Positions 1-17,164 of a DNA stretch of 32,895 nt are shown in pieces. The notes under the pieces are model-generated. The model did not search any database. It was not told the origin of the DNA and saw only the letters and a list, made by a program, of their open reading frames with translations. The stretch spans positions 1-32,895 of the forward strand of contig JAUXFX010000014.1 in the NCBI GenBank assembly GCA_030622635.1. The letters are read 5' to 3'. The number at the start of each line of letters is the position of its first letter. Position 1 is the stretch's first letter. The DNA comes from Bacteroidota bacterium. GTDB lineage: Bacteria > Bacteroidota > Bacteroidia > Bacteroidales > JADFUO01. The translations under genes were made by a program, and so were the position numbers.

Positions 1-1711
1 CAACATGTTCGGGAACTTTAGCCGGTTCATCTGTTTCGGCATTGTTTACAGGTTCAACATCATTCCATGGTAATTTACATAATCCCACCAAACCGAACCA
101 AGTTCTGAACATCGGGAAATAGTGCAGAGCTTCAGCTTTATCTTCAAAAGTTGGGATTTGATTATTGACCATGTCCATGAATATCAGCCATGCTTCGTCA
201 TGCTGAGGTCCTTTGTTGGTCATTGCAAAACCACCCTGCTGAGCCAATGATTCTTTTGAAACATATTCGGAATATTCCAGCCCTTTGTTTTCCATTGCAA
301 TATCCTGAAGAAATTTTGCGTCGCCCCAACCCTTTTCAGCAAATATTTCTTTCATTTTTCTTGTTCCTTTTCCTGCGATAACACCAAATCCTTCGCCTCT
401 TGCAAGCTGATGCATTAGTTCCATTGCAGAATCCGTATTTCCGAAATTAAGTTTTAATCCACCGGTTCTTTCTTCATTAAGGATACCGTTTTCATAACAT
501 TCCATTAAGAATGCCAAAAGTGTTCCCCATGAAATCGTACAAATACCGTAAGTATCGCAGTAAAAGTTAGCTTCAATAATATAATCGGGATTAAAGATTC
601 CGCAGTTTGAGCCCAATCCGCCGGCGTTTTCATATTCAGGTCCGTCAACTAATACTTTTTGTCCTTTATAAGGTCCTGTCCTTAATTCATAATTATCAAC
701 ACCTTTGGAACAAGCCATGTTACAGCCGATCCAGCAACCATCGGGAATTCCTTGAGTAAATCTCTCTTTCCATACATCCCCGTGAATTTTATCACCTTCA
801 GGAGAACTCCCAAACTTATAATTATGAGTTGGTAACAAATCATAATCATTCATAATGTTTACCAGATGAGCAGTTCCTTTTGTTCTCATTTCTGCCTGAG
901 AATCGTCAAGGTCCCTCATTTCCTTGTTGAAGATTTTACCTCTTTCCATGATGGCTTTAAGGTCAACTACATTATTGAGATTACCTTTAACTCCGGGAAT
1001 TTTAGCAACTATTGCCCTTATCTTTTTATCTCTGAAGACAGTTCCAATTCCGCCACGACCTGCTTGTTTCAAACGTACGAGCTTTCTTTTGGGGTCATAA
1101 AAACTGAAATTCAACATACCGATTAATGAATGTTCGGCTGCTGCACCTGTAGAAACAACACCAATATTTTTTTTGTCTTTTTCGTTTTCGGCAAACATTT
1201 CAGTAAGTTCTTCTGCAAGCAAATGGCTGTCAACGGGTTCTTCGGAAGCTTCAAAAATCTCAACTTTATGATTTACACCGTCAATATAAATAATAACATC
1301 ATTAACGGCTTTGCCTTGTAATTCAATGGCATCAAAGCCAGAAAATTTTAAAAACGGACCGAAAAAGCCACCGACATTGCTGTCCATCACCGAGTTAGTT
1401 TGCGGTGAAATTGAAACAACAAGCGACTTTCCTGCACCTGAATATTGAGTGATACCACCAATCGGGCCTGACGAGATTATAATTTCATTTTCAGGATCAT
1501 TCCACTTTGTATCCGGTTTTGTTGCTTCCCATAAAAGTTTTAATCCGTAACCTTTACCTCCGATAAATTTTTCTTTCATTAATGCAGGTACGGATTTTTC
1601 TATTATTTCATTATCAGAAACATTGATGTACAAAATCTTGTCTGTATAACCTTTGTCAAGTGGAGTCCATTCATATTTCCACTCTTTTAAATGCTTATGA
1701 TTGTTTTTCAT
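1..1711 (-). CDS. Aldehyde ferredoxin oxidoreductase family protein (C-terminus runs off the left edge)
   Basis: Manual minus-strand translation from ATG at 1711 is open to position 1: MKNNHKHLKEWKYEWTPLDKGYTDKILYINVSDNE...FIGGKGYGLKLLWEA...SSGPIGGITQYSGAGKSLVVSISPQTNSVMDSNVGGFFGPFLKFSGFDAIELQGKA...KQAGRGGIGTVFRDKKIRAIVAK...GCWIGCNMACSKG. Absent from the ORF track, probably because no stop lies inside the window. Confidence 0.9.
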   Translation of the reverse strand, partial: MKNNHKHLKEWKYEWTPLDKGYTDKILYINVSDNEIIEKSVPALMKEKFIGGKGYGLKLLWEATKPDTKWNDPENEIIISSGPIGGITQYSGAGKSLVVSISPQTNSVMDSNVGGFFGPFLKFSGFDAIELQGKAVNDVIIYIDGVNHKVEIFEASEEPVDSHLLAEELTEMFAENEKDKKNIGVVSTGAAAEHSLIGMLNFSFYDPKRKLVRLKQAGRGGIGTVFRDKKIRAIVAKIPGVKGNLNNVVDLKAIMERGKIFNKEMRDLDDSQAEMRTKGTAHLVNIMNDYDLLPTHNYKFGSSPEGDKIHGDVWKERFTQGIPDGCWIGCNMACSKGVDNYELRTGPYKGQKVLVDGPEYENAGGLGSNCGIFNPDYIIEANFYCDTYGICTISWGTLLAFLMECYENGILNEERTGGLKLNFGNTDSAMELMHQLARGEGFGVIAGKGTRKMKEIFAEKGWGDAKFLQDIAMENKGLEYSEYVSKESLAQQGGFAMTNKGPQHDEAWLIFMDMVNNQIPTFEDKAEALHYFPMFRTWFGLVGLCKLPWNDVEPVNNAETDEPAKVPEHV

Positions 1712-1954: not shown

Positions 1955-2028
1955 TCCTCCTTAGCTCAGTTGGTTAGAGCATCTGACTGTTAATCAGAGG
2001 GTCGTTGGTTCGAGTCCAACAGGGGGAG
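1955..2028 (+). tRNA. tRNA-Asn (anticodon GTT)
   Basis: Acceptor TCCTCCT/AGGGGGA, anticodon stem TCTGA-CTGTTAA-TCAGA, T-arm GGTTCGAGTCC, discriminator G; CCA not encoded. Confidence 0.95.
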
Positions 2029-2037
2029 CAGAAACTG

Positions 2038-2105: not shown

Positions 2106-2179
2106 GGGGCATTAGCTCAGTTGGCTAGAGCGTTTGACTGGCAGTCAAGAGGTCATCGGTTCGATTCCGTTATGCTCCA
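2106..2179 (+). tRNA. tRNA-Ala (anticodon GGC), intact copy at an integration site
   Basis: Acceptor GGGGCAT/ATGCTCC, anticodon arm TTTGA-CTGGCAG-TCAAG, GGTTCGATTCC, discriminator A. Confidence 0.93.
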
Positions 2180-2232
2180 CTTTAATTAAAAGATCATTTT
2201 GTTTTTACGCTACTTTTAAATCATAAACACTT
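2134..2232. repeat. 99-bp perfect direct repeat, copy A (att-like: tRNA-Ala 3' part plus hsdR 3' end)
   Basis: Identical to 3561-3659 (offset 1427). Divergent similarity continues to about 2300. Confidence 0.95.
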
Positions 2233-2340
2233 CTTCCTCCACCAGGGTAATTTGTAAATATGTGTTGATAAACCACATTAGTTTTTTCATTTACTTCTTC
2301 TCAATGACTGGTTCCGGTAATTCTCTAAATTGGGTCATGT
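2205..2340 (-). pseudogene. HsdR C-terminal relic
   Basis: Minus-strand reading gives EEVNEKTNVVYQHIFTNYPGGGRSVYDLKVA*, matching the intact HsdR C-terminus (KEVDEKTNVIYQHIFTNYFGGGKSVYDLKVA*). A frame break lies just upstream (RELPEPVIEKK*). Confidence 0.85.
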
Positions 2341-2370
2341 TTGTAAATTTTAAGGTTAATATTTGGAATT

Positions 2371-2880
2371 TTATTCATTGTTCTTTTTGATTTTATATCC
2401 TATCGGTTCCCGGGGTGGGTTTATTGGATTTAATAAATATTTAAGTGCTTCATTAATATCTTTGAATTTCATGTTCATTTCCTTTTCAATAGCATTAATT
2501 TGTTGTTTTAGTTCCTTATAATCCATGTAATATTGCCTAAGTAAAACAAAAGCTCTCACAATTAAAATATTTACCTCAATAGCTTTTTTACTCCTTAAAA
2601 TACTTGCAAGCATTGCTACTCCCTGTTCTGTAAATGCCAAAGGTGTGCCGGGGTTATGTTTGATGTTTTCAGGCAACTTATCACAGTTTGTGATAAGTTC
2701 ATTCCATTCAGGTTTTGTAAGTTGAAACATAAAGTCATCAGGAAACCTGGTTAAATTTCTTTTGACTGCTTGTTTTAATGTCCTTGTTTCCACTTCATAC
2801 AATTCAGCCAGATGAAAGTCCATCATAACCCTTTTGTTTCTCAATTTAAATATTTTAGATTGGATTAATTGAATTTGCAT
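2371..2880 (-). CDS. ORF6N domain-containing protein
   Basis: 169 aa: IFKLRNKRVMMDFHLAELYEVETRTLKQAVKRNLTRFPDDFMFQLTKPEWNEL...LAFTEQGVAMLASILRSKKAIEVNILIVRAFV, an ORF6N/KilA-N-like pattern. Confidence 0.85.
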   Translation of the reverse strand: MQIQLIQSKIFKLRNKRVMMDFHLAELYEVETRTLKQAVKRNLTRFPDDFMFQLTKPEWNELITNCDKLPENIKHNPGTPLAFTEQGVAMLASILRSKKAIEVNILIVRAFVLLRQYYMDYKELKQQINAIEKEMNMKFKDINEALKYLLNPINPPREPIGYKIKKNNE

Positions 2881-2949
2881 TATTTTATTTTTTAAATGTT
2901 TATATCAGGTATTTTATTCATTGCCTCTTTTTTCTTTTAATACATAACT

Positions 2950-3336
2950 TTATTGAAAGTCAGTTAATTTCTTTGCAAATTCATTTAAAGACTTTAAGGC
3001 AGCTCTATAAAGAATTGCAGATTGAAATTTACTTTCTTTTTTCAGTTCTTTTATTTTGGTTTCAAAAAAATCTTGAATAGTGTTTTTTTTCTTTTTCTTG
3101 TTTTTATAAAGGTTTTCAAAATCCTCAAATGAAAATTCACTTAAGTTTTCATCTATAATTGTAATAGCTCTATTCTCAATACTATCTAATTTTCTTTTTG
3201 CTACTTTATACACTCCTCTGGGCTTAGGTGCAATAATTTTTTCATAATCACTTTTTGTATATGACTGCCCCTTTATGCTGTAATATTTTTGTTCTCTTTC
3301 AAATGTAATTCTTAACTTAACGGGGGAATGTATCAT
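2950..3336 (-). pseudogene. Truncated site-specific tyrosine recombinase (N-terminal/SAM-like part only)
   Basis: 128 aa with arm-binding/SAM-like pattern (ITFEREQKYYSIKGQSYTKSDYEKI...FSFEDFENLY...IQDFFETKIKELKKESKFQSAILYRAALKSLNEFAKK) ending where the catalytic domain should begin; adjacent to the tRNA att repeat. Confidence 0.65.
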
Positions 3337-3560
3337 CCTTTTTGGTATATCTTGTATCTAAAATAATGGAAGTAGTTACTTCCGGTTTTTTTCTTTCAGT
3401 ATCCATAATAAAAGATTTTTATTTATTTGCATACAAATACACATACAATTATTGAAAAACAAAACATAATTACAAGAAAATATTATTATCTATTAAACTT
3501 ATATTACTACATTTAAGTAAATAAAGCAAATTATCAGAAATCAAAAGAAAGGTAAATTTA

Positions 3561-3659
3561 TTGACTGGCAGTCAAGAGGTCATCGGTTCGATTCCGTTAT
3601 GCTCCACTTTAATTAAAAGATCATTTTGTTTTTACGCTACTTTTAAATCATAAACACTT
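3561..3659. repeat. 99-bp perfect direct repeat, copy B (tRNA-Ala 3' 46-nt fragment at 3561-3606 plus hsdR 3' end)
   Basis: Identical to 2134-2232. The tRNA fragment starts at the anticodon stem TTGACTGGCAGTCAA. Confidence 0.95.
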
Positions 3660-6600
3660 TTTCCTCCACCAAAATAATTTGTAAATATGTGCTGATAAAT
3701 TACATTCGTTTTTTCATCTACTTCTTTATCAGGATATGGCTCTTGTGGTAACTTTAAAAGTGAATCGTAAATTGTCGTTTTTACCTGTGCTTTTAACTGA
3801 GTGCTTTCTCTCCAACGTTCAACTTTTAATTTTTTAGTTTTTAAAGTTTCCAATGTCTGTTTAGATACCTTTTTAACTTCTTCAATTTCGTTGTCGGTTA
3901 GGCTTTCTTTTTTCAATAAATCAAAAATCGCAAGTGTTTCTTCATCAAGTCCTTCTCGCATTGCCCTTGTATCTTCTTCTGATAAGGTTTCGAGAAAGTC
4001 GGTTAAATCGTCAAATGCTTTTTTTGTTGCGTTTATATCTTTTCCGTTGTTATAATCATCAATAATCTCTTTGTATTTTTCGTAAAATTCCAGGCGCAAA
4101 GGATTTTCCTTTATCATTTGCTTTAATTTCTTTTCAATTGCTTTTTGCAAGTCAAAGACCATTGTGTTTTTCATTTTAATCTTTGCAAATGCTCTCTTTA
4201 ATTTATCAAAATCGAGACCTGACAGGTCAATAGATTGCTCTTCAGAATTAGGTACAAAATCAAAATATTCTTTATTATTCTTAATAAAAACACTCTCGTT
4301 TACCATACCTTGAAGCTGCATCATAATTTCAGTAATATCTGCCGTTTTTACTTTTTGGTTTAATGCGTCATAAATGGCTTCAATCGCATTGAATTGTTTA
4401 ATGAAAGGTTTTATTTCGTCTTCGGGATAAAGTGCTTTGTATTTTCTGAAAACATCTCTTGCCATTATCTCAAATTTGGTTCGGGTGGTTTCGTTTAATG
4501 TTACTTTATCGGTTGCTTCATTAATTTTTGCCAGTTTTTCCATTGGTTTGGCATTCATCAAATCCGGTAAATTAAAACCAAGTTCTTTTAAGTAACCTTT
4601 TGTGGCACGTATGGACTCTTTTAATTCATCTGCCAATGTTTCAAGCAATTCAACAGGTCTTTCGTCTCTTCCTTTGCCATTTGTTCCCGAAACGCCTGTA
4701 TTTCCTCTGTCGCCACCTTCACCGTAAACAGAATAGGCTTTTTCTAATTGTTTGTAAGCATTTCCATAATCTATAATCAAACCGTTTTCTTTTTCGTCAT
4801 CATAAACACGGTTTGCACGGGCTATGGTCTGCATTAATGTATGTCCTTTAATCGGTTTATCTAAATAAACTGTAGAAACACAAGGTGCATCAAAACCGGT
4901 AATCCACATTGCACATACAATTGCAAAACGGAACGGATTTTCTTCGTCTTTAAACTCTTTTTCTAAATCTCTTTCCACTATTTTTTTACGATGTGGTGCA
5001 ATTTCTAAATTCATTTTGCGGAATTTGTCCACTTCGTTTTGCTCGCTGCTGACTACAACACAAACTTCCGTTTCATCAACTTTACTGAGTTTTCGTTTAA
5101 GCTGTAATTCTTCTTGTTGGTCTTGTGCATTTTTTATTCTTTCTTTTAAATCAGTAACATAGTCCGGCCAGTATTTCATTATCAAATCATACATTCTTAC
5201 TGCCGTTGGTTTGTCAAGTGCAACAAATATTGCTTTTCCCTGATAACCTCTTTCATTAAAATGCCATACCAAATCTTTTGCAATAGCATCTAATCGTTTT
5301 TCGGAAGTGAGCACCGGATAATCCCGTTTAAATTCTCTTTCTAATTTTCTACGTTGGTCTTCGTCTAAGTCTTCATTTTCTATAAGTTCCGCCATTTTTT
5401 CATCCAATTGCGGATTTTCAATATCTAATTTTTCTCCTTTGTTCAGGTAACGCAAAGGAAGTGTAGCACCATCATCAATGGCTCGTTTAAAATCGTAAAC
5501 AGAAACATATTCACCAAAAATATTCTTTGTAAGCTCTAATTCTTCTTTGATTAATGGTGTGCCTGTAAAACCAAGATATGAAGCATTTGGAATACCGTGA
5601 AAACGCATATTACGAGCAAATGTTCCTGCTTGTGTTCGGTAGGCTTCGTCTGAAATTACAATTAGGTTTTCTCTGTCTGTAATTAGCGGATATTCGCTTT
5701 CCTTTTTCTTGTCTATTGAAAATTTATGAATTAAAGAAAAAATGTAACGGTGATTTTCTTTGAGCAACTCCCGCAAATGGTCTCGGTTTTCTGCTTTTAC
5801 ATTCTTTTCCGTTACCGATCCAACTCCTGTAAATGTATCGTAAAGTTGGCGTTCTAATTCTGTACGGTCGGTTACAAGTAAAAAAGTGTAGCTACCACCA
5901 AATTTTCTGTGAATTTTTTGAGCGATAAAAACCATTGAATAGGATTTTCCGCTTCCTTGTGTGTGCCAGAATACACCCAATTTTCCTTTAAGTTCTTCAA
6001 TGTTTGTTGCTTTATTCAGAACTTTATTTACACCAATAAACTGGTGGTTTTTAGCCAATATCTTTACACTATCGCCTGCAGAATTATCAAAAAGAATAAA
6101 ATTCTCGAACAAATCTATTAATCGAGTTTTATCGCAAGTACCTCTAAGCATAGTATCAAGTCTTACTATTCCTTTATCGTGTTCTTCAATTCGTTTCCAC
6201 TCTGCAAAAAATTTGTATGGACTTGTTACTGTTCCAACTCTTGCATCTGTTCCATTGCTTAAAATGATAAAAGCATTGGTATATAAAATGTGCGGGATAG
6301 TATCTTTATAATCGGTTAGGTTATCGGTGTATGCATTGCGTAAATTTGTATGATGGGCTTTGAGTTCGAAAAACACCAAAGGAATACCATTTACAAAACC
6401 TACAATATCGGGTCTGCGGTTGTATAATTCTCCTACTACTTCCAGTTGACGAACAGCCAGAAAATGATTTTCGGTAGGATTATCAAAATCAAAAACCCGT
6501 AATTTTTTCTTTATCAGTTCACCTTTATCATTAGTGAAACTGACATCAATTCCTTTGGTTAATAGAGTATATTTTTCTTTATTGATTTGAACTAATGTTT

Positions 6601-6880
6601 TATCCGCTGCTTTTTGGATTATTTGGTCAATAGCGTGTTGGTAGGCAACATTAGGTAGTCCTAAATTTAATTTTGTTAAGGCCTTTAACAGATATCGTTT
6701 GAGAATGACTTCTGATTTATTGTCACGTCCTAATAACCCATCTTCACCAAAAGTTTCTTTATACCAGGCAAATTTTACCTGCCAACCCAAATTTTCTAAT
6801 GCTTGTTGGGCTGCTGCTTCTACGAGATTATCTTCTGAATATTCGTTGCTCATATTAGTTTTATTCCACAGTTTATCCAT
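3632..6880 (-). CDS. hsdR: Type I restriction enzyme, R subunit
   Basis: 1082 aa: RPDIVGFVNGIPLVFFELK (nuclease), FWHTQGSGKSYSMVFIAQ (Walker A), VISDEAYRTQ (DEAD-like), GFTGTPL, FDAPCVSTVYLDKPIKGHTLMQTIARANRV. Confidence 0.97.
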   Translation of the reverse strand: MDKLWNKTNMSNEYSEDNLVEAAAQQALENLGWQVKFAWYKETFGEDGLLGRDNKSEVILKRYLLKALTKLNLGLPNVAYQHAIDQIIQKAADKTLVQINKEKYTLLTKGIDVSFTNDKGELIKKKLRVFDFDNPTENHFLAVRQLEVVGELYNRRPDIVGFVNGIPLVFFELKAHHTNLRNAYTDNLTDYKDTIPHILYTNAFIILSNGTDARVGTVTSPYKFFAEWKRIEEHDKGIVRLDTMLRGTCDKTRLIDLFENFILFDNSAGDSVKILAKNHQFIGVNKVLNKATNIEELKGKLGVFWHTQGSGKSYSMVFIAQKIHRKFGGSYTFLLVTDRTELERQLYDTFTGVGSVTEKNVKAENRDHLRELLKENHRYIFSLIHKFSIDKKKESEYPLITDRENLIVISDEAYRTQAGTFARNMRFHGIPNASYLGFTGTPLIKEELELTKNIFGEYVSVYDFKRAIDDGATLPLRYLNKGEKLDIENPQLDEKMAELIENEDLDEDQRRKLEREFKRDYPVLTSEKRLDAIAKDLVWHFNERGYQGKAIFVALDKPTAVRMYDLIMKYWPDYVTDLKERIKNAQDQQEELQLKRKLSKVDETEVCVVVSSEQNEVDKFRKMNLEIAPHRKKIVERDLEKEFKDEENPFRFAIVCAMWITGFDAPCVSTVYLDKPIKGHTLMQTIARANRVYDDEKENGLIIDYGNAYKQLEKAYSVYGEGGDRGNTGVSGTNGKGRDERPVELLETLADELKESIRATKGYLKELGFNLPDLMNAKPMEKLAKINEATDKVTLNETTRTKFEIMARDVFRKYKALYPEDEIKPFIKQFNAIEAIYDALNQKVKTADITEIMMQLQGMVNESVFIKNNKEYFDFVPNSEEQSIDLSGLDFDKLKRAFAKIKMKNTMVFDLQKAIEKKLKQMIKENPLRLEFYEKYKEIIDDYNNGKDINATKKAFDDLTDFLETLSEEDTRAMREGLDEETLAIFDLLKKESLTDNEIEEVKKVSKQTLETLKTKKLKVERWRESTQLKAQVKTTIYDSLLKLPQEPYPDKEVDEKTNVIYQHIFTNYFGGGKSVYDLKVA

Positions 6881-6927: not shown

Positions 6928-8301
6928 TTATTCATTTTCAATTATTACCCAATGTCCTGTTTTATCTGAACCCACTCTCTTTATGATTTGTTTATCTTTT
7001 AACTTTTTTAAATTATTTTCTATTGATGTTGTACTAACTCCAATTAGTTTAGCCATTTCCGGTATTGTTACATCTGGATTATTCTGAATAGCATTAAAAA
7101 CATTCTGCTCATTTACACCCAACTTTACACCCAACTTTACACCCAACTTTACACCCAATTTGTTTCTTCGAAAAACAATCGTAAACATACCTTTGGTTTT
7201 AAATACAGGTTCCGGCAACCCGGCTTCACGAATATCTGTTTTTATCCGCCTGATTCCCGAGCCTACTTGTTCAACCATATCCATTCTTTGGAATAAACCA
7301 AAAACCAGGGGATTTCTGCTCGAACTTTTTGTTCCGAATTCTTCAGGTAAAATGGCACTTACTAAACCACCGGGATTGGTTATTTCTACCTGGTCATCAA
7401 ACAATTCAATCATCGTTCTGCCACCTTTGTCATAATAATCGCGATGAGACAGGGCATTGATAATGGATTCTTTAAGAGCGGTTTCAGGAATTTCCCATAC
7501 TTCTTTTCTGGGTCCGCTTCCTTCAATAATATATCGCACACTCAATTTAGTTTTCAGCCACCGCAAGGCATCGCGGTATTGTTGCATTAAGGGTCCTCCC
7601 CATACTTTATCGTCAATGATTTGGACTTTGTCGGTGCCTTCAAAAGCAACACAGCGGATTACGGCTTTTTCAAAATAGCTTTCAGGTTGTTTGCCGAAAA
7701 ACAATACACTACCGTTCTTAAAAACATTGACATCATCTAACAATTGCAAATTCCTGATGATTTGCCAATCTTCTGTAGCTGGAGAAAAGCCAGCAATTAT
7801 CCTAAATTCCTTAAAAAACTCTTTATCAAAATCACTCTCAAAAGAAAAGTTGTTGCAACTGCCCTCATCAAAATAGATACGACCCGATTGCTGAAAAAAA
7901 TCACGCATTTGCTCTACCGAAATTATTTTCTGTGAATTTGCCCCCTGTCTGACATAAATAGCTCCCGACAAAGTATATGGCTTTTGTAAGCCCGAAGGCA
8001 CTTCAATTACTCCAATTTGTTTTCCGCCCACTTCAACAAAATAAAAGGGACAATGCAAGTTTGGATTAATTTGATGAAGCGAATTTTGAATTGCCGACCG
8101 TTTTTTATTGTTGATTTCAATACCGCGAATCTCATTATTATCATCAACACCGAGAAGCACAACTCCTCCGGCAGCATTGGCAAAGGCACAAACTTCTTCG
8201 GTAAGCTCTTTTACCTTTGCAGGAACACGAACTTTGAACTCGGCATTGTAGCCTTCACCGGATTGCGCAATACTCTTTATGTCAGTTTCTGTTAGTTGCA
8301 T
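6928..8301 (-). CDS. ATP-binding AlbA_2/Schlafen-like protein (COG2865 type) embedded in the RM operon
   Basis: 457 aa: GEGYNAEFKVRVPAKVKELTEEVCAFANAAGGVVLLGVDDN, ALKESIINALSHRDYYDKGGRTMIELFDDQVEITNPGGL, C-terminal winged helix. Confidence 0.88.
   Translation of the reverse strand: MQLTETDIKSIAQSGEGYNAEFKVRVPAKVKELTEEVCAFANAAGGVVLLGVDDNNEIRGIEINNKKRSAIQNSLHQINPNLHCPFYFVEVGGKQIGVIEVPSGLQKPYTLSGAIYVRQGANSQKIISVEQMRDFFQQSGRIYFDEGSCNNFSFESDFDKEFFKEFRIIAGFSPATEDWQIIRNLQLLDDVNVFKNGSVLFFGKQPESYFEKAVIRCVAFEGTDKVQIIDDKVWGGPLMQQYRDALRWLKTKLSVRYIIEGSGPRKEVWEIPETALKESIINALSHRDYYDKGGRTMIELFDDQVEITNPGGLVSAILPEEFGTKSSSRNPLVFGLFQRMDMVEQVGSGIRRIKTDIREAGLPEPVFKTKGMFTIVFRRNKLGVKLGVKLGVKLGVNEQNVFNAIQNNPDVTIPEMAKLIGVSTTSIENNLKKLKDKQIIKRVGSDKTGHWVIIENE
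7112..7159. repeat. 12-bp tandem repeat, 4 copies, encoding KLGV repeats in the AlbA-type protein
   Basis: TTTACACCCAAC x3 followed by TTTACACCCAAT. Confidence 0.95.
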
Positions 8302-9526
8302 ATTTTGCTTTACTTTCTGCTGCTAAATTTAATAAATTTTCCTCATTGCTCTGATATAAATTCAATTTTTCAACATTTATCATCCCCGTCATTAGCCGTG
8401 GCAATAATATATCTCGGGCTTCTTTTAGGTTTTGGTTTTGGATATGTAAATTTTCAATTTCTTTATCAATTGGAATAACTATGTGATTGAATTTTTGCAT
8501 AGTATTTTCATTACCTTCAATTAATTCAATTCTTAACATATCATTTTTAGTTACTGAATTAAATATAGCACCACCACCCATTAAATTATCTTCAAAAAAT
8601 ATTTGTTTTAATTGATTAAATAAAAACCCATTCCATCCATTTTTATGTCTAACTGATGCCAAGCCTCTTCCTAAAATAATTTTGTTGATGGCAATATTTA
8701 GTCTTCCTACAGGTGCTCTTACGCTAAATAAAACATCTCCTTTTTCTGCTACTCGATTACCATTTATACTCCACATTGTATTTGTCGGAAACCTTTCACC
8801 ATAATCTTTTACCCCCTGATGGAATGGTAATCCTTTTCGTTCTATATTATAAAATTCGGATTTTGGACTTTGTCCCATTGTTAGATTACAAGCATCCCCC
8901 AACTTCACCTTCCGCCACCCTTCCGGCAACCCAGTTTTCTCATCAATAGTCAATTTTACGCCATCAATTTTAAATCGCACAAACCACTCCTCATAAGTTT
9001 TTTGTGCCATCTCCTCCAACAGCTTAATGCGTTTTAGGTTGTTTTCTATCAGGTTGTCGTAGGCGGAGAGTATGGTGGCTATTTTTAATCTTATTTCCGA
9101 TTTTTCAGGTAAGAATAATTTTGTTTTTCTTAAATCGGGTCCACTTATTGCATCATAAACAGCTCCATATGAGCGAGCTAAAAATGCTTCACGATTTACC
9201 TTTATTGTGTAATAAATAAATCGTTGTTCATCTGTATTTTTTGCATTAATTGCTGCTAAACCTCTACCAATACAACATTTGACTTTAGTAATGTTTAATT
9301 CTCCAACAGGTGCACGAACAGTAAAAAGCACACTGTCTTTTTCAGCTTCTTTAGTTATTTTGTTTGTATATTGTCTAATTGTCGGAAATAATTCTCTAAA
9401 TTCTGTCTTTCCTTGAAAAAAAGGCAGTCCAGAACCTTTCTCATTATAATATTTGGAAGGTGGTGATTGCCCCATAATAACATCAGCAACTTCTTCTAAT
9501 CTATATTCTTTCCACCCTTCCATCAT
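8282..9526 (-). CDS. hsdS: Type I restriction-modification specificity subunit S
   Basis: 414 aa with two TRDs (MGQSPPSKYYN...GLPFFQG and MGQSPKSEFYN...GLPFHQG) and conserved helices (IATILSAYDNLIENNLKRIKLLEEMAQKTYEEWFV). Confidence 0.95.
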   Translation of the reverse strand: MMEGWKEYRLEEVADVIMGQSPPSKYYNEKGSGLPFFQGKTEFRELFPTIRQYTNKITKEAEKDSVLFTVRAPVGELNITKVKCCIGRGLAAINAKNTDEQRFIYYTIKVNREAFLARSYGAVYDAISGPDLRKTKLFLPEKSEIRLKIATILSAYDNLIENNLKRIKLLEEMAQKTYEEWFVRFKIDGVKLTIDEKTGLPEGWRKVKLGDACNLTMGQSPKSEFYNIERKGLPFHQGVKDYGERFPTNTMWSINGNRVAEKGDVLFSVRAPVGRLNIAINKIILGRGLASVRHKNGWNGFLFNQLKQIFFEDNLMGGGAIFNSVTKNDMLRIELIEGNENTMQKFNHIVIPIDKEIENLHIQNQNLKEARDILLPRLMTGMINVEKLNLYQSNEENLLNLAAESKAKYATNRN

Positions 9527-10191
9527 AATTCCACGCTTTGAATTTTGTTAATATTTCTATTTAAAATACTAATAATAAATCGCTTTACAATATTAGCTTC
9601 ATCGCTTTTGCTTGTGGCAATAAAGAGTGTTAAAGAAGCTAATTCTTCGTGGTCATAATCGTCAAGTAGTTCCAAACCTGTTGAAAAGATATTCAGTATT
9701 TCGTTTTCTTTGGTTTCGTTTCTTGCTTCAATGGCACGGCTAAGTATCTGTATTCCTGTTTTAAGATGTAGTACTTCTTGCTGTTTTTCGTGCAATCGCT
9801 TTTCGTTTATGGCATAACCTTTTACAAGGAAGTCTTTTAGGCGTTGTGTTGCCCATTGGCGGAATTGTGTTCCTCTTTTTGAATTAACTCGATAACCAAC
9901 TGATATAATAGCATCTAAATTATAAAATTTGATATTTCGTTTTACATTTCGTTTTACATTTCGTTTGCCCTCTTTTTGAACTACCGAGAAATACTCGGTA
10001 GTTGAGTTTTCGTCTAATTCACCTTCTTTGAAAATATTTTTAAAATGTAATCCTATGGTGTCGCTGTCTTTATCAAATAACTCTGCCATCTGTTTTTGAC
10101 TAAGCCAAACAGTTTGCTCATCAAATTTTACTTCAACAATAGTTTGGCTGTCTTTAGTTTGATATATTTCTATTTTGTTTTGTTCTTCCAT
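9523..10191 (-). CDS. RhuM-family protein, shortened, with apparent loss of the Fic/DOC core
   Basis: IEIYQTKDSQTIVEVKFDEQTVWLSQKQMAELFDKDSDTIGLHFKNIFKEGEL...TEYFSVVQKEG...FYNLDAIISVGYRVNSKRGTQFRQWATQRLKDFLVKGYAINEKRL is RhuM-like. It then passes from LELLDDYDH directly to ELASLTLFIATSKSDEANIVKRFIISILNRN. Confidence 0.85.
   Translation of the reverse strand: MEEQNKIEIYQTKDSQTIVEVKFDEQTVWLSQKQMAELFDKDSDTIGLHFKNIFKEGELDENSTTEYFSVVQKEGKRNVKRNVKRNIKFYNLDAIISVGYRVNSKRGTQFRQWATQRLKDFLVKGYAINEKRLHEKQQEVLHLKTGIQILSRAIEARNETKENEILNIFSTGLELLDDYDHEELASLTLFIATSKSDEANIVKRFIISILNRNINKIQSVEL
9934..9969. repeat. 12-bp tandem repeat, 3 copies, encoding KRNV repeats in the RhuM-like protein
   Basis: ATTTCGTTTTAC x2 followed by ATTTCGTTTGCC. 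Confidence 0.9.
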
Positions 10192-12167
10192 TACAATTTT
10201 ACGCTCTGTATTTGATTCATTAAATCGTTGGCTTCGGTATTCAGTTCTGTCAGTTCGCTGTGTATCTCTTTCATTCGGGCTTTGTAGTCAAAATCTTCAT
10301 CAATTTGTATGCTGTAACCAACATATCGCCCGGGTGTAAGTGAATAGTCATTTTCTATTATTTCTTCAAAGTCAACTATTTTACAAAGTCCTTCAACATC
10401 CGCATATTTATTTTCGGGGAAATATTCTAAAAGTTTTTTCCAATCGCTTATCCTTTGTTTAATCTCTTTCAAATATTCGGCAATCTGCATTTGATATTCT
10501 TTTAAAGGTTTGTTGAGTTTGTTCAGCTTGTCTTTAAAAGGCTTCATTTTGGCGGTTACTGTTTTCTTATCTATTTTTTGAGACGAACGGCTGTTCGTCT
10601 GTACGAGTGCTGCAATTTCTTTTTCAAGTTCTTTGATAAAATCCAGTGCTTTTGGTGTAGGTTTTTCAAAAGCAGTTAGAATTTCTTCGGCATTTTCGGG
10701 ATTATCAAAGTTGCTAAAATTTACCGTTTCCGAAATAATTAAATCGTCAATTTTTAATTCGACAGATAATTGCTTTAATTCTTTTGCAAGGATTTTATAA
10801 TGGTCGTTCACCATTTCAAACTGTTCGTTTAAAGCATTTTTATGCGCTTTATCAGCTATTGTAACGGCTTCGGTATTTCCACGGTAAAGCTGAACAATAG
10901 TTGTCAGGTTTAATAATTGCCCTTCTGAAAAATCGTTGATAGTTGAGTTCACAACACGATAGGTATTTCGTGCATCAAGCATCAAAATCTTATTCTTGTT
11001 TGTCTGTGGTTTGCCTTTATCAAAAAACCATAAATGACAAGGCAAAGAACGGGTATAAAAGAAGTTGTTGCCCACCGAAACAATCACATCTACATTTTCG
11101 GTTTTAATAAGTTGTTGGCGTATCAGCTTTTCAGAATTACCTGCATCGGTAGCAGAACTTGCCATAACAAAACCGGTACGCCCTTTTTCGTTCAGATAAG
11201 AATTAAAATACTGTATCCACATATAATTGCCATTGTCGGCTTTTGGCACGCCAAAAGGTAAGCGAGGGTCTTCTTTTACATAATCTTTATTCTTGTCAAT
11301 TTTCTTTACATTAAAAGGCGGATTAGCCATTACAAAATCGCATTTGCCAATCAAATTATGCGGGTCGCTGTAAAAAGTATTGTCTTCTAAAATCTTCCCT
11401 TCAATTCCGTGTATAGCAAGGTTCATTTTTGCCAAACGAACATTGTTTGATTTAAGTTCAGTTCCGTAAACAGTTATAGCCTCGTTAACCTGTTTGTTGG
11501 TATGGTTTTTAACAAAATAGCCGGTTTGCACAAACATACCACCCGAACCGCAAGCCGGGTCGTGTATAATTCCGTGCTCGGGTTCAATAAAATTTACAAT
11601 GAGTTGAACCAATGAAGGCGGTGTGAAGAATTCGCCCCCTTCCTGAGCACCGGCACCACTCATTGAAAATTTCATTAGAAAAAATTCATAAATCCTGCCA
11701 AAAACATCACCGGAAATATTTTTTACAGCATCTTTATTAAAAACCCGAATAAGCGAACGCAATAAATCGGCATCAAATTCCTGGTAGTTTTTTGGCAGAA
11801 TTCCTTCAAGGTCTTTGTAATCAGCCTCAATCAATCGCATCGCATTATTTACGGCTTCTGCAATATCATTGCTTTCGGGCAAGTTTGCCAAATATTCGTA
11901 TTGCGATTCAGCTTGTAAATACATTGCACCCGCAGCCAGCAAATCGTTTTTTGACAGCTTTCTTTTTTTGCCTGTTCTTGGGTTTATTGGTAAATTATCC
12001 TCTATCTGGTTTTTAGCTTCTTCAAATCTGTTTTGTGCGTAACGCAAAAGGATTAAACCGAGAACAGGATCTTTATATTCGGCAGCCGTTAATTTTGAGT
12101 TGGCACGCAATTCATCTGCTGCTCCCCACAATTCCGTCTCTAATTTCTTTATTACTTCGTTTGTCAT
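10191..12167 (-). CDS. hsdM: Type I restriction-modification methyltransferase subunit M (ORF opens at 12242; MTNEVIKKLETELWG at 12167 is the likelier start)
   Basis: GRIYEFFLMKFSMSGAGAQEGGEFFTPPSLVQLIVNFIEPEHGIIHDPACGSGGMFVQTG and DFVMANPPFNVK (NPPF) motifs. Confidence 0.96.
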   Translation of the reverse strand: MTNEVIKKLETELWGAADELRANSKLTAAEYKDPVLGLILLRYAQNRFEEAKNQIEDNLPINPRTGKKRKLSKNDLLAAGAMYLQAESQYEYLANLPESNDIAEAVNNAMRLIEADYKDLEGILPKNYQEFDADLLRSLIRVFNKDAVKNISGDVFGRIYEFFLMKFSMSGAGAQEGGEFFTPPSLVQLIVNFIEPEHGIIHDPACGSGGMFVQTGYFVKNHTNKQVNEAITVYGTELKSNNVRLAKMNLAIHGIEGKILEDNTFYSDPHNLIGKCDFVMANPPFNVKKIDKNKDYVKEDPRLPFGVPKADNGNYMWIQYFNSYLNEKGRTGFVMASSATDAGNSEKLIRQQLIKTENVDVIVSVGNNFFYTRSLPCHLWFFDKGKPQTNKNKILMLDARNTYRVVNSTINDFSEGQLLNLTTIVQLYRGNTEAVTIADKAHKNALNEQFEMVNDHYKILAKELKQLSVELKIDDLIISETVNFSNFDNPENAEEILTAFEKPTPKALDFIKELEKEIAALVQTNSRSSQKIDKKTVTAKMKPFKDKLNKLNKPLKEYQMQIAEYLKEIKQRISDWKKLLEYFPENKYADVEGLCKIVDFEEIIENDYSLTPGRYVGYSIQIDEDFDYKARMKEIHSELTELNTEANDLMNQIQSVKL

Positions 12168-12474
12168 ATTATGTTTAAAGTGTTTTGATTTTATTATTTT
12201 GGTTTGCTTTATATAGATTTTATATTTCTGACGTTCAAGCAAAAATATTGAATTTGTTTGAATTTGTTTTTTGTCATTATAAACGACATATTTGAAGGTA
12301 CTCTTTACAAATTAGCGCCAGTTGGGGATTTCTTTGAGAAGCATGTCTTTAATAAAAGTTAAAGTTTAATTATTTGCTAAAGTATAAAATAATTATGAAA
12401 AGGAAGAAAAAAATGTACTAATATCCAAAATCATTTCAATGACACAAATTAAAGAAGATTTTTAACAGCACATA

Positions 12475-12561
12475 ATCGAGGCGGCTGGTGGTCAAATGAC
12501 AGTGCGCCTCTCACACCACTCCCGAAAGTTTTCGGTATACGGGTCTCGTATACGGCGGTTC
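12475..12561 (-). ncRNA. Probable group II intron 3'-end remnant (domains V/VI), interrupted by a TCCCGAAAGTTTTCGG palindrome
   Basis: Minus strand GAACCGCC-GTATACG-AGACC-CGTATAC-...-GTGGTGTGAGAGGCG...CGCCTCGATT resembles group II intron DV/DVI; no RT ORF. Confidence 0.45.
12520..12535. repeat. Palindromic repeat TCCCGAAAGTTTTCGG
   Basis: Inverse-orientation relative of 24031-24048; a half copy occurs near 27119. Confidence 0.7.
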
Positions 12562-12654
12562 ATCAGACAAAAGAAATTTCGAGTTGTGTCTCATTTGGCA
12601 CTGACCGGTGAGATTTCTGAAATTGCTCTGAAAAAGAAAAATAACCTCTCTTTT

Positions 12655-13938
12655 TCAGTCTTTCAAACACCTTACAGAAAAGCCAACTGATTTTGGGAAA
12701 TTCATAAAAAATGCTTTTTCAAACAAATAATTCAAGGAAACATATTTAGCTTCAATCGCTCCATATCCTGTTGATGCCCAAAAATTTCCGCTGCTTCTTA
12801 TATCTTTAAAGGTTGAATCAATATAACGATAACCGCCTGGTAAGGCTGTAAAACCGCTCCAATTATTTGCACCCGTATTAGGAGGATTCCATAGAACTGT
12901 TCCTGTTTCTTTCATTTTGCCACCGGCTATATCAGAACCTCCTAAAAAGTTGGATAATGCTGTCCATTCATTAAAAGATGGAAGATGCCATCCATCGGGA
13001 CAAATACCTTGATTTCCTCCTGAATATGTGTATTGCATCATTTCGTCCCATTGATATAGCCCGCCGTATGTTGTACAAGTTGCAGGATTGTTGTCATAGC
13101 AATACTTTTCAATTGTATCATTATTAGTTTGATTAAAATCCCCATTTATCATTATTCCGACATTCAAATTTTCGTCTAACCAGCATTGATTTCCAATCAC
13201 TATTGTATGATAAACCTGACCTTCATAATTAACCGATGTTATATTATCGCATGGGTCAACAGGGTCTTCTGTTGCAAACGACCAAATATTACCCTCAGTT
13301 TCATTGCCTTTATTATCTTTTGCAACAATTTTCCAATAATAAATCACACCATTTTCCAATGTGACTGGGTTAAATATTTGTACGTTCGTATCCTGAACAA
13401 TAACAGGGGGTTCAATTGTTTTACCTAAATAAATATCAAAAAGTAAAGAATCACCTTCCGGATCGGTACAAAACCATGAAAGTGTCGTTTCAACAGGTAC
13501 GTTAACATCACCATTGGCAGGTGTAGGATCATATGGTGGACCCGGAGGTTTGTTACCTTGGGCAATTACAACAACTTCTCTTGAAGTAGTACCGGTCCAT
13601 CCGGAATTATCTTTCACTCTTAATTGGATATTGTAAGTTGCAGCAGAATCATATTTATGCGAAGCTATTTTTGTTGTTGTGTATTCTGTCCAGATATTAT
13701 TGTTTCGCCAATCCCAGCTTACTTGTAATTCTGACGGCGGGTCTTCGTTGTCAAAGCTTTCCGAAGCATCAACAATAAATATGGTTAATGTATCACCGGA
13801 TGTTGGACTTACAGTAAATGTTGCAGTTGGTGCATATTCATTTTCATCAATATCTTTCTGACAGCCAATAAATATAATTAAAAAAGCTACAAATAATACT
13901 ATCAGTACTATTGTACTTTTACTTTTAAATAAAACCAT
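12655..13938 (-). CDS. Lipoprotein with PKD-like and fibronectin III-like domains and a FISUMP (Fibrobacter succinogenes major paralogous) domain
   Basis: Lipobox-like IFIGCQ after a TM segment; DTLTIFIVDASESFDNEDPP...WDWRNN (PKD-like); VPVETTLSWFCTDPEGDSLLFDIYLG; CWLDENLNVG...YGGLYQWDEMMQY...GICPDGWHLPSFNEW...GGYR (FISUMP). Likely start MVLFKSK at 13938, not the ORF start at 14028. Confidence 0.88.
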   Translation of the reverse strand: MVLFKSKSTIVLIVLFVAFLIIFIGCQKDIDENEYAPTATFTVSPTSGDTLTIFIVDASESFDNEDPPSELQVSWDWRNNNIWTEYTTTKIASHKYDSAATYNIQLRVKDNSGWTGTTSREVVVIAQGNKPPGPPYDPTPANGDVNVPVETTLSWFCTDPEGDSLLFDIYLGKTIEPPVIVQDTNVQIFNPVTLENGVIYYWKIVAKDNKGNETEGNIWSFATEDPVDPCDNITSVNYEGQVYHTIVIGNQCWLDENLNVGIMINGDFNQTNNDTIEKYCYDNNPATCTTYGGLYQWDEMMQYTYSGGNQGICPDGWHLPSFNEWTALSNFLGGSDIAGGKMKETGTVLWNPPNTGANNWSGFTALPGGYRYIDSTFKDIRSSGNFWASTGYGAIEAKYVSLNYLFEKAFFMNFPKSVGFSVRCLKD

Positions 13939-14006
13939 GATTTGAACACTTAAAACGCACAAATATATTAATAAAAAATGATAAAAACAAATATTTGCTC
14001 TTAAAT

Positions 14007-14140
14007 AGTGCTTGCCAGAAAACGCCAATTTCTTCGTTATGCTCGTGCAGAAAACCAGTCATCCGTATGGACTCTTGATTTTTTGCACTTCGCATCCCGA
14101 TAATTATCGGGACGAACTTGACGATTTCTGACTAAGCACT
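14007..14140. repeat. 134-bp hairpin-forming MITE-like element
   Basis: Ends AGTGCTTGCCAGAAAACG and CGATTTCTGACTAAGCACT are imperfect inverted repeats. Internal TGCTCGTGCAGAAAA/TTTTTTGCACTTCGCA pairing and a CCCGATAATTATCGGG palindrome. Confidence 0.7.
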
Positions 14141-14308
14141 CTAAAATATTGAGTTTTCTTGCAGACACTGAAGTTACCGCATATGATAAGTTTCGGGATT
14201 AATGATATTCAATAAAATGTTTTTTAAAATTACGTTTTATGATTCACGGATTAAATATCTGGTCGAAATTCGAAATTCGTAATCCGTAATCCGTAATTGC
14301 AGCAATTC

Positions 14309-15826
14309 CTACCAGTTAACATAATGAACCGTAAAGCCTTCATTCTGATATTCACGGATAACTTTTCTGCGCGCTTCCTCTGCATCTTTTTTGTAAACAA
14401 AGCCAATTGACACCCGATGCCCTGTAGTAACTTCGGGCCATTCTTTAATATTTTTTATAATAATATGATTAAACCTTTTCTGTAGATCATGGAGTATTTT
14501 GGTGTAATGTATATTACTTACATAGGCATTAAAATCTTTTTTGCCTTGTCCGTCGGGGCTGCAATAGCATGATGAATATACAAAATAATAATATGAAGGG
14601 TTTTTTACAAATGATAAAGGAGTGGTAGCCCAAATTGAAGATTCGGTTTCTGCTTTTGGTTTTTTTCTGATTTTGCCGTCATTACGGAATATTGAAGATA
14701 TAAAACCATAACAATTATCCAAACCGCTAAGTAAAACATCCAGATCGGTATCTCTGTCATAATCACCCCATGAAGCATAACTAAAATATATTCCCGGCAA
14801 TTCTGCATAAATATCAGTAAAAACAAAATTACTATCGTTTCTGTAAACTTTTGAAACAGCTTTACGATATGTTTCTCCTGTTAACAAAACATCCAGATCG
14901 CCGTCATTATCATAATCACCCAAATCAACACATCCTGAACGTACACCTACAATATCAGTAAAAATATCTGAAAAGGAACCATTACCATTATTTTTATAAA
15001 CTTTAGAAATTATCCGTTTGCCACTGGCTTCACCTGTAAGTAAAATATCCGGATTTTTGTCATTATTCAAATCGCCCCAGTCAACAGAGCTGTTTCTAAC
15101 TCCTTCCAATCCTGCATGAATATCTTTAAAAATATCTTTCCCTTCGTTACGGTAAATTTTTGAAACCAGGCTCCCATTATATCTTTCGCCGGTAATAAGC
15201 ACGTCCAGATCGTCATCATTGTCGTAATCGCCCCATTTGGCTGAACTAAGAAAAACAGGTACTAAACCGGCATTGATGTCGGTAAACAAATTTTTACCGT
15301 CATTGCGATATATTTTTGAAATAACAGATCCTTTATAACTTTCGCCGGTAAGAAGAATATCCAAATCGCCGTCATTATCATAATCACCCCATTCAACAGA
15401 ACCGTCTCTTACAGGTATTAAATTTGCTTTTATATCAATAAAAACATTATTGCCGTTATTCCTGTAAATCTTTGATATGAATTTATTATTATAAGTTTCG
15501 CCGATAATAGCAATGTCCTGATCGCCATCATTATCATAATCACCACAATCTATTGAACCCCTGTAAACATCCGGGATGCTTGTTTTTAACACCCAGAATT
15601 TATTTTTTTTCGCATTCCTGTAAAGCTTAGTTAAAATTTTATGATTCGAGCCATCGTATCTGTCGCCTGCCAGTATAACATCAAGATGTTTGTCTTTATT
15701 AAAATCAATCCACGAACCTGCACTTTGCATTACGCCTCTGAAGCCCGGTTTGATATCAACAAATGGCTGGGAAATAAGAAAATTTGAAAAAAACAATGTT
15801 AAAAACAGCAACTTAAATTTTTTCAT
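14309..15826 (-). CDS. Secreted FG-GAP/VCBS repeat protein with a C-terminal SPOR-like segment
   Basis: Signal peptide MKKFKLLFLTLFFSNFLISQ; seven repeats of the WGDYDNDGDLDVLLTGE...SKIYRN type; C-term HRVSIGFVYKKDAEEARRKVIREYQNEGFTVHYV. Confidence 0.85.
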   Translation of the reverse strand: MKKFKLLFLTLFFSNFLISQPFVDIKPGFRGVMQSAGSWIDFNKDKHLDVILAGDRYDGSNHKILTKLYRNAKKNKFWVLKTSIPDVYRGSIDCGDYDNDGDQDIAIIGETYNNKFISKIYRNNGNNVFIDIKANLIPVRDGSVEWGDYDNDGDLDILLTGESYKGSVISKIYRNDGKNLFTDINAGLVPVFLSSAKWGDYDNDDDLDVLITGERYNGSLVSKIYRNEGKDIFKDIHAGLEGVRNSSVDWGDLNNDKNPDILLTGEASGKRIISKVYKNNGNGSFSDIFTDIVGVRSGCVDLGDYDNDGDLDVLLTGETYRKAVSKVYRNDSNFVFTDIYAELPGIYFSYASWGDYDRDTDLDVLLSGLDNCYGFISSIFRNDGKIRKKPKAETESSIWATTPLSFVKNPSYYYFVYSSCYCSPDGQGKKDFNAYVSNIHYTKILHDLQKRFNHIIIKNIKEWPEVTTGHRVSIGFVYKKDAEEARRKVIREYQNEGFTVHYVNW

Positions 15827-15905
15827 AATCCGAATGTAATTTTTTTAAAATTCAGCATAAAGTTAAATGTTTTTTTAAAAACCAATAATTATTTATAGAA
15901 TATAT

Positions 15906-15933
15906 TTGAATATCAAAATTTAAATTACTTTTG
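15906..15933 (+). promoter_or_regulatory. Putative Bacteroidota promoter upstream of mce
   Basis: TTG at 15906-15908 and TACTTTTG at 15926-15933, 17-bp spacer. Confidence 0.45.
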
Positions 15934-15960
15934 CGAAAAATATAAAATAAATATTATATA

Positions 15961-16374
15961 ATGAAACCATCTCATATTGAACACATTGGAATAGCTGTAA
16001 AAAGCTTAAAAGAATCTATTCCATATTACGAAAACATACTTGGATTAAAATGCTATTCTATTGAAAAAGTTAAAGAACAAAAAGTAAAAACAGCTTTTTT
16101 TCATGTTGGTCAAACAAAAATTGAGCTTTTAGAATCAACTGATCCTGAAGGACCCATCGGTAAGTTTATCGAAAAAAAAGGAGAAGGAATTCATCATATT
16201 GCTTTTGCTGTGAAAGATATTGAAAAAGTTTTGGAAGAAACCGAATCAAAGGGCATACGATTAATTGATAAAATACCGAGAAAAGGAGCAGAAGGGCTTT
16301 ATATTGCATTCCTTCATCCAAAATCCACTTTTGGTGTATTAACGGAATTTTGCGAGAATAAAAATTCAAAATAA
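15961..16374 (+). CDS. mce: Methylmalonyl-CoA epimerase
   Basis: IEHIGIAVKSLKESIPYYENILGLKC...VGQTKIELLESTDPEGPIGKFIEKKGEGIHHIAFAVKDI. Confidence 0.95.
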   Translation: MKPSHIEHIGIAVKSLKESIPYYENILGLKCYSIEKVKEQKVKTAFFHVGQTKIELLESTDPEGPIGKFIEKKGEGIHHIAFAVKDIEKVLEETESKGIRLIDKIPRKGAEGLYIAFLHPKSTFGVLTEFCENKNSK

Positions 16375-16543
16375 TAAACATTAATTGATAAAAAATCCTT
16401 TATAAATATTTGTGTTTAGGGTGTCCTAATGCGGAAAACAGGTGTAACTGTTTATAAATTTCCATATCATTTTTTTAAGATTTTTACAGCCTCTTAAAAA
16501 AATTCAATATCTTTATCAAAAATTTGAATTAAAAACTTTATTT

Positions 16544-17164
16544 ATGTTAATGATAGGTATTGCCGGTGGTTCGGGCTCCGGAAAAACAACTGTGGTTAAT
16601 AAAATTATTAAAAGTTTACCAAAAAATTCCGTAGCAGTTATTTCTCAGGATTCGTATTACAGAGATAATGGTCATTTGTCAGCGGATGAAAGAGCTAAAA
16701 TCAATTTTGACCATCCTTCATCAATAGAATTTAAATTACTTATTGAACATCTTGATATGTTAAAAGCAGGTAAAACGATACCTATGCCGATATATTCGTA
16801 TCTAACCTGTGCACGAGCTAAAGAAACCATTAAGATTAAACCTGAAAAAGTAATAATAGTTGAAGGAATATTAATTCTTACAAATCCCCGACTTAGACAA
16901 AGACTTGATATTAAAACATACGTTGACGCTGACAATGATGACCGCCTGATGAGAATAATCAGGAGAGATATTGAAGAAAGAGGCCGCTCGTTAAGGGATG
17001 TGCTTGAACATTACGAAAAATATGTAAAACCCATGCATCTGCAATTTATCGAACCTACAAAAAGATATGCCGATATTATTATTCCCCAGGGAGGCGAAAA
17101 TGATATAGCTATTGATATTCTCACATCAAGAATAAAAATAAATTTGAATAGTGATAATATATAG
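16544..17164 (+). CDS. udk: Uridine kinase
   Basis: MIGIAGGSGSGKTTV (P-loop), ISQDSYYRD, NFDHPSSIEF, VIIVEGILIL, RIIRRDIEERGRSL. Confidence 0.96.
   Translation: MLMIGIAGGSGSGKTTVVNKIIKSLPKNSVAVISQDSYYRDNGHLSADERAKINFDHPSSIEFKLLIEHLDMLKAGKTIPMPIYSYLTCARAKETIKIKPEKVIIVEGILILTNPRLRQRLDIKTYVDADNDDRLMRIIRRDIEERGRSLRDVLEHYEKYVKPMHLQFIEPTKRYADIIIPQGGENDIAIDILTSRIKINLNSDNI

What the first reader, a model, noticed from the sequence alone, without database searches (positions are those of the whole stretch)
2106..3659. tRNA-Ala(GGC) integration scar: 99-bp perfect att-like repeat that includes an hsdR 3' end
2134-2232 and 3561-3659 are identical. Each starts at the anticodon stem (TTGACTGGCAGTCAA), runs through the tRNA 3' end and into the 3' end of hsdR. 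The 1427-bp offset encloses an hsdR relic, an ORF6N gene and an integrase fragment. The intact tRNA is left of the scar and the 46-nt fragment abuts the working hsdR. This fits successive integrations of related RM islands at one tRNA, followed by loss of the middle of one.
Basis: partly seen in the sequence, partly recalled or inferred. Interest (0 to 1): 0.72.

Follow-up and report, generated by a model that had tools for sequence, protein, structure and literature searches.

The report
Decayed tandem islands at tRNA-Ala
Two related DNA islands carrying a restriction (anti-virus) system appear to have inserted side by side at the end of one tRNA gene and then partly decayed; it is a clear example of a well-known way in which bacteria gain and lose defence genes.

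Summary
The repeat is real: 2134-2232 equals 3561-3659 exactly, and homology runs on to about 2299/3726 at 95%. It is an att scar. The relic beside it is the N-terminal part of a tyrosine integrase. In 13 of 15 integrases examined (window included), a tRNA 3'-half, cut at the anticodon stem, lies at a similar place and in the same orientation upstream of the gene. One relative has the whole layout: intact tRNA-Asn, 7.4-kb island, integrase, 46-nt fragment. A same-genus genome (G002) has this integrase-side island end and the att core joined directly to the chromosomal flank that in the window lies beyond the restriction operon. So the site is polymorphic and the operon at 3608-~12640 is an extra insertion there. 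The relic hsdR end looks like a different allele, not a decayed copy of the working gene. Best reading: two related type I RM islands accreted in tandem. The left one shrank to 1.4 kb with a dead integrase; the right one lost its integrase and distal att. Order of arrival is unknown, and a mixed-strain assembly join is not excluded. This kind of structure is already described.

The parts
2..1711 (-). left chromosomal flank: aldehyde ferredoxin oxidoreductase-like gene (named from reading its sequence, not from a family search; open at window edge)
   Evidence: 96% identical protein in same-genus G003 C244, which ends before the tRNA pair
1955..2029 (+). tRNA-Asn(GTT)
   Evidence: ARAGORN and Rfam
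2106..2180 (+). intact tRNA-Ala(GGC), restored target gene, holds the left att core
   Evidence: ARAGORN and Rfam
2134..2180 (+). att core copy 1 (anticodon stem to tRNA 3' end)
   Evidence: exact repeat; same sub-site in 13 of 15 integrases examined, window included
2181..2303 (-). left island end with relic of an hsdR 3' end (last 31 codons, different allele)
   Evidence: in-frame translation and comparison with working hsdR and relatives
2371..2880 (-). ORF6N-domain gene, 169 aa, surviving cargo of the left remnant
   Evidence: Pfam PF10543
2950..3408 (-). tyrosine integrase pseudogene: N-terminal segment in another frame near 3323-3408, frameshift, ~130 residues, then apparently fused to the C-terminal tail; catalytic domain missing
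   Evidence: tblastn with full-length relatives; two full-length relatives carry PF00589/PF13102/PF17293
3490..3560 (.). integrase-side island end (non-coding)
   Evidence: 100% identical over 71 bp to G002 C505:1-71, where it leads through the att core to the chromosomal flank
3561..3607 (+). att core copy 2: tRNA-Ala 3'-half fragment, about 155 bp beyond the integrase start
3608..3631 (.). left end of the second island, between att core and hsdR stop codon; identical to 2181-2204
3632..6880 (-). hsdR, 1082 aa, open
   Evidence: Pfam; 85-87% identical relatives in other Bacteroidota
6928..8301 (-). AlbA_2/Schlafen-type gene inside the RM operon
   Evidence: Pfam PF04326
8282..9526 (-). hsdS
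   Evidence: Pfam PF01420, two stretches
9523..10191 (-). RhuM-family gene
   Evidence: Pfam PF13310
10191..12242 (-). hsdM
   Evidence: Pfam PF02384, PF12161
12465..12640 (.). dispersed genus-specific repeat at the right edge, where the second island's integrase and distal att would be expected
   Evidence: 77-94% copies elsewhere in G000 and G001; flank homology with G002 starts at 12640
12640..16600 (.). right chromosomal flank (Fib_succ_major gene, FG-GAP gene, glyoxalase, start of a uridine kinase-like gene)
   Evidence: 89-98% identical pieces in the same order in G002 C505, FG-GAP gene largely missing there

Best explanation
The 3' half of tRNA-Ala(GGC), from the anticodon stem on, is the attachment site of a tyrosine integrase family found in about one sixth of the same-order genomes sampled. 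Integration restores the tRNA and pushes a 3'-half fragment to the island's far end, next to the integrase start (shown by comparison). Two related islands, each ending in an hsdR 3' end 24 bp from the tRNA core, accreted in tandem here (inferred). The left one then collapsed to hsdR tail, ORF6N gene and a dead integrase. The right one kept its type I RM operon but lost its integrase and distal att (that they are missing is shown; that they were once there is inferred). No functional integrase of its own is left, so the array should be fixed in place, apart from excision by an integrase acting in trans or homologous deletion between the 99/166-bp repeats, which would remove the 1427-bp remnant.
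For: Exact repeat from the anticodon stem. 13 of 15 integrases examined (window included) have a tRNA 3'-half fragment at a similar distance, all in one orientation, none reversed; background 135/1680. G054 C6 has intact tRNA-Asn, island and 46-nt fragment, with a 54-bp repeat at 96%. G002 C505 joins the same integrase-side end through the core to the right flank without the RM operon. Relic hsdR differs from the working hsdR in about nine of 31 codons, stays in frame, and shares N and P states with Algoriphagus hsdR. G032 C53 carries integrase-hsdM-AlbA-hsdS-SIR2-HerA-hsdR behind a tRNA-Met fragment, the order inferred here. The hsdR was found in only 4 of 295 same-order genomes at E<=1e-200, and not in G001-G003.
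Against: No third att core: the second island's distal end is gone, so its site-specific entry is inferred. No genome with an empty or complete single island at this tRNA was found; G001-G003 are 77-82% complete and lack a clear tRNA-Ala(GGC) hit. The closest hsdR relatives elsewhere are not beside a tRNA. Draft assembly. The first 99 bp are identical while the next 67 differ at 9 positions, which may mean a later exchange between the two copies.
Confidence: 0.7

Rival explanations
1. One island entered by integrase. The RM operon with the second hsdR end then came in by homologous recombination (through hsdR or the tRNA/island-end sequence), not by a second site-specific integration.
For: No distal att for the second unit. 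The right edge ends in a dispersed repeat rather than an att. Perfect identity of the first 99 bp against 9 mismatches in the next 67 hints at exchange near the junction.
Against: The second unit begins exactly at the tRNA core with an island-type end, as an integrase product does. The related integrase family carries an RM island with hsdR distal to the integrase.
Confidence: 0.14
2. Assembly chimera: two strains in the sample have different single islands at this tRNA, and the assembler joined them at the shared core.
For: The window is one contig of a 279-contig draft genome. The 47-bp core and 99-bp repeat are natural places for a wrong join. In G002 the same integrase-side end leads straight to the flank.
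Against: No N in the contig. A wrong join at 3561-3607 rests on a 47-bp overlap only, so it needs an assembler word size shorter than that. No contig with the alternative flank junction exists in this genome. The other resolution of the 99-bp repeat leaves a 1.4-kb circle with no replication genes.
Confidence: 0.13
3. Simple local tandem duplication of tRNA 3' end plus hsdR 3' end, without islands.
For: A direct repeat of 166 bp exists.
Against: The 1427-bp unit itself is not repeated. The two hsdR ends are distinct in-frame alleles. An integrase pseudogene with family-typical spacing sits at the second core. A same-genus genome lacks the RM operon at this site.
Confidence: 0.03

Closest known systems
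Tandem integrative islands at tRNA genes, as mapped by Islander (PMC4383910)
   Same: Intact tRNA gene, displaced 3' fragment in the same orientation, tyrosine integrase, anticodon-centred sub-site (2083 of 3919 Islander islands; 125 tandems of two or more).
   Different: Here neither member of the array has a working integrase and the third fragment is missing, so Islander's own rule for a tandem (each member with its own fragment and integrase) is not met.
Cis-mobilizable elements (CIMEs) accreted beside other integrative elements (PMC7563491)
   Same: The left remnant has att cores on both sides, no working integrase, one cargo gene and 1.4 kb; described classical CIMEs are 1.2-13 kb and lie in tandem arrays.
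   Different: Origin from a conjugative or mobilizable element is not shown; no relaxase or conjugation gene was seen in either unit.
RM/defence island of G032 C53 (locus L060)
   Same: Same integrase family, tRNA 3'-half fragment beside the integrase, order integrase-hsdM-AlbA-hsdS-...-hsdR.
   Different: tRNA-Met target, low protein identity (hsdR 29%), extra SIR2-like and HerA-like genes, intact integrase; its left end is not at an intact tRNA within the contig.
Riemerella anatipestifer 10-kb genomic island (PMC6764341)
   Same: Bacteroidota tyrosine-integrase island at a tRNA gene with ~50-bp direct repeats, shown by experiment to integrate and excise.
   Different: Single, functional island; its repeat is reported in or just downstream of tRNA-Arg.

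Membership tests
Tyrosine-integrase genomic island in a tRNA gene | Intact tRNA gene plus cognate displaced fragment, same orientation, 3' fragment downstream | tested here: met
   2106-2180 and 3561-3607, both +
Tyrosine-integrase genomic island in a tRNA gene | Integrase gene inside the interval | tested here: met
   Present as a pseudogene, start about 155 bp from the fragment; catalytic domain missing
Tyrosine-integrase genomic island in a tRNA gene | Presence/absence polymorphism at the site | tested here: met
   G002 C505 lacks the RM operon between core and right flank; a completely empty site was not found
Tyrosine-integrase genomic island in a tRNA gene | Active excision or integration | not testable with these tools
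   Needs PCR for circles; the resident integrase is broken
Tandem island array | Each island has its own tRNA fragment and integrase | tested here: not met
   Only one fragment and one integrase pseudogene; no third core in the assembly
Tandem island array | Two distinct island ends of the same type, each next to an att core | tested here: met
   Two hsdR-type ends of different allele, each 24 bp from a core
CIME | att sites on both sides, no own recombination genes that work | tested here: met
   Cores at 2134 and 3561; integrase catalytic part missing
CIME | Derived from an ICE or IME | tested here: inconclusive
   No relaxase or conjugation gene in the remnant or the RM unit among Pfam hits; the ancestor is unknown

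The most novel reading that the evidence does not exclude
The 1.4-kb remnant could be a kept, non-autonomous mini-island: both att sides are preserved with an ORF6N gene, movable in trans by an integrase of the same family, and able to seed further accretion of RM islands at this tRNA.
Probability: 0.08. Interest if true: 0.45.

Novelty: new member of a known kind. Interest (0 to 1): 0.3.

Why it matters
It shows how a defence (type I RM) locus can be gained at a fixed chromosomal address and then frozen there by decay of the integrase and att site. The integrase family defined on the way, with its anticodon-stem cut and limited distance to the gene start, gives a practical rule for finding island ends in this order, even when the integrase is only a fragment. 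Otherwise the finding is an ordinary example of known island biology.

Tried and rejected
Local tandem duplication: rejected, since the 1427-bp unit is not repeated and the hsdR ends are different alleles. A third att core elsewhere in the genome: none. An empty tRNA-Ala site in the same genus: not found; G003's contig ends before the tRNA-Ala position and G001-G003 show no full-length hit. The att/hsdR junction in viral contigs: none. Relatives of the integrase fragment in viral contigs: none. Relatives of the ORF6N protein in viral contigs: seven, 42-54% identical, not studied further. hsdR relatives beside a tRNA: not seen in the five genome-contig loci. ORF6N as part of the RM operon in hsdR-bearing relatives: no hit. 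Folding of the tRNA plus its new downstream sequence: nothing unusual.

Full report
Observation. The two stretches 2134-2232 and 3561-3659 are identical over 99 bp at an offset of 1427, with no identical base to the left. The repeat continues at lower identity, in all 166 bp at 95%, and then stops. The left copy begins at the anticodon stem of an intact tRNA-Ala(GGC), 2106-2180, which follows a tRNA-Asn. The first 47 bp of the right copy are therefore a tRNA 3'-half fragment. Both copies continue through 24 bp into the 3' end of an hsdR gene on the minus strand. The right copy belongs to an open hsdR of 1082 aa; the left copy is a relic of its last 31 codons.

The integrase. The ORF at 2950-3336 has no Pfam match of its own, but 48 of 295 same-order genomes (its own included) encode a match, mostly as the N-terminal part of proteins of 400-480 aa. 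Two full-length relatives carry the Arm-binding, SAM-like and catalytic integrase domains. Aligning the relatives to the window shows a further N-terminal stretch in another frame at about 3323-3408, so the gene starts near 3408 and has a frameshift. The protein reaches about residue 175 and ends in FAKKLTDFQ, which resembles the last residues of two relatives (...EFAKKLTAFKKL and ...EFAKKLSAFKKT). I infer an internal deletion of roughly 260 codons between short similar stretches, which removed the catalytic domain. The integrase is dead.

Geometry of the att site. I took the window and 14 related integrase loci and searched 450 bp upstream of the aligned start for a tRNA T-loop motif. 13 of 15, the window included, have one on the expected strand; none has one on the other. 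Random 450-bp stretches of the same set of loci give 135 of 1680, a generous background because many of these loci were fetched for their tRNAs. Each of the 13 stretches reads as a tRNA 3' half that begins at the anticodon stem, from several different tRNAs (tRNA identities are my reading of the anticodons). G054 C6 shows a whole island: intact tRNA-Asn at 1784-1858, integrase at 7882-9207 on the minus strand, 46-nt tRNA-Asn fragment at 9269, the two ends sharing 54 bp at 96%. The window's second core lies where this family's fragment should lie. The scar is therefore an att scar, with the core beginning in the anticodon region.

Polymorphism. The same-genus genome G002 has a contig, C505, whose first 98 bases equal window 3490-3587 exactly: the integrase-side island end and the first part of the core. 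There the core is interrupted by an insert of about 86 bp, then completes the tRNA 3' end, then runs through 47 bp into sequence homologous to the window from 12640 on: the Fib_succ_major gene, then glyoxalase and the next gene. So in G002 the island end meets the chromosome directly, and in the window about 9 kb with the RM operon stands between them. The hsdR was not found in G001-G003 at E<=1e-200 and was found in only 4 of 295 same-order genomes.

Two alleles. Over the shared hsdR end the relic and the working gene differ in about nine of 31 codons, with the frame kept: T, V, Q and Y silent, V/I, R/K, P/F and N/D replaced, and differences at the junction itself. The relic's N in VNEKTN and P in NYPGGG are found in the hsdR of Algoriphagus hitonicola. 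This fits a second functional allele that was cut down later, better than a decayed copy of the resident gene. The first 99 bp are identical and all differences lie beyond them; this may reflect constraint on the island end or a later exchange, and I cannot tell which.

Right edge. After hsdM (start 12242) there is a short stretch and then, at about 12465-12640, a repeat with 77-94% copies elsewhere in the genus, directly against the flank. The distal att and the 47 bp of flank seen in G002 are missing, and no other contig of the genome holds them.

An intact analogue. G032 C53 has a tRNA-Met 3'-half fragment, then a full integrase of this family, then hsdM, an AlbA gene, hsdS, SIR2-like and HerA-like genes and hsdR, all in the order and orientation inferred for the ancestor here. 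Its proteins are only distantly related, so this supports the layout, not descent.

Reading. The most economical account is accretion of two related RM islands at tRNA-Ala, with decay of both. Shown: the att geometry, the broken integrase, the two hsdR ends, the polymorphism, the missing third core. Inferred: the tandem integration itself and its order. Insertion at the left core or at the right core would give the same array. Rivals kept open are entry of the RM operon by homologous recombination and a wrong join of two strains in this draft genome.

Comparison with known systems. Islander lists 3919 islands in tRNA/tmRNA genes, over half with anticodon-centred sites, and 125 tandems (PMC4383910). 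Decayed elements that keep their att sites but lack recombination genes are known as CIMEs and are often found accreted beside other elements, at sizes of 1.2-13 kb (PMC7563491). A Bacteroidota island at a tRNA with ~50-bp repeats has been shown to integrate and excise (PMC6764341). The present locus is a new, decayed member of this known kind.

Noticed in passing
L062/L080 (G002 C505) 99-184: An insert of about 86 bp with TGCC...GGCA ends splits the att core's T-loop region in G002; it has no other copy in the four same-genus genomes searched.
   Followed up: partly
window 12465-12640: A dispersed repeat of this genus (copies in G000 C275, C66, C19 and G001 C102) sits exactly at the edge of the RM unit; its nature was not determined, and no Rfam family reached threshold.
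   Followed up: partly
window about 14000-14170 and 16390-16440: Two further short dispersed repeats with dozens of copies across the genus's genomes.
   Followed up: no
window 14309-15826: FG-GAP repeat protein gene with seven ~156-bp internal repeats; largely missing in G002 between the Fib_succ and glyoxalase genes.
   Followed up: no
window 2304-2370: Short stretch between the hsdR relic and the ORF6N stop with a 15-codon open frame (MTQFRELPEPVIEKK); origin unknown.
   Followed up: no
L028 (G003 C244) 201-768: In G003 an extra ~570 bp lies between the aldehyde ferredoxin oxidoreductase-like gene and the sequence before the tRNA pair.
   Followed up: no
L055 (G149 C27) 2798-2849 and 10766-10817: A second relative with a 52-bp exact direct repeat, one copy at a tRNA 3' end beside the integrase: probably another complete 8-kb island.
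   Followed up: partly
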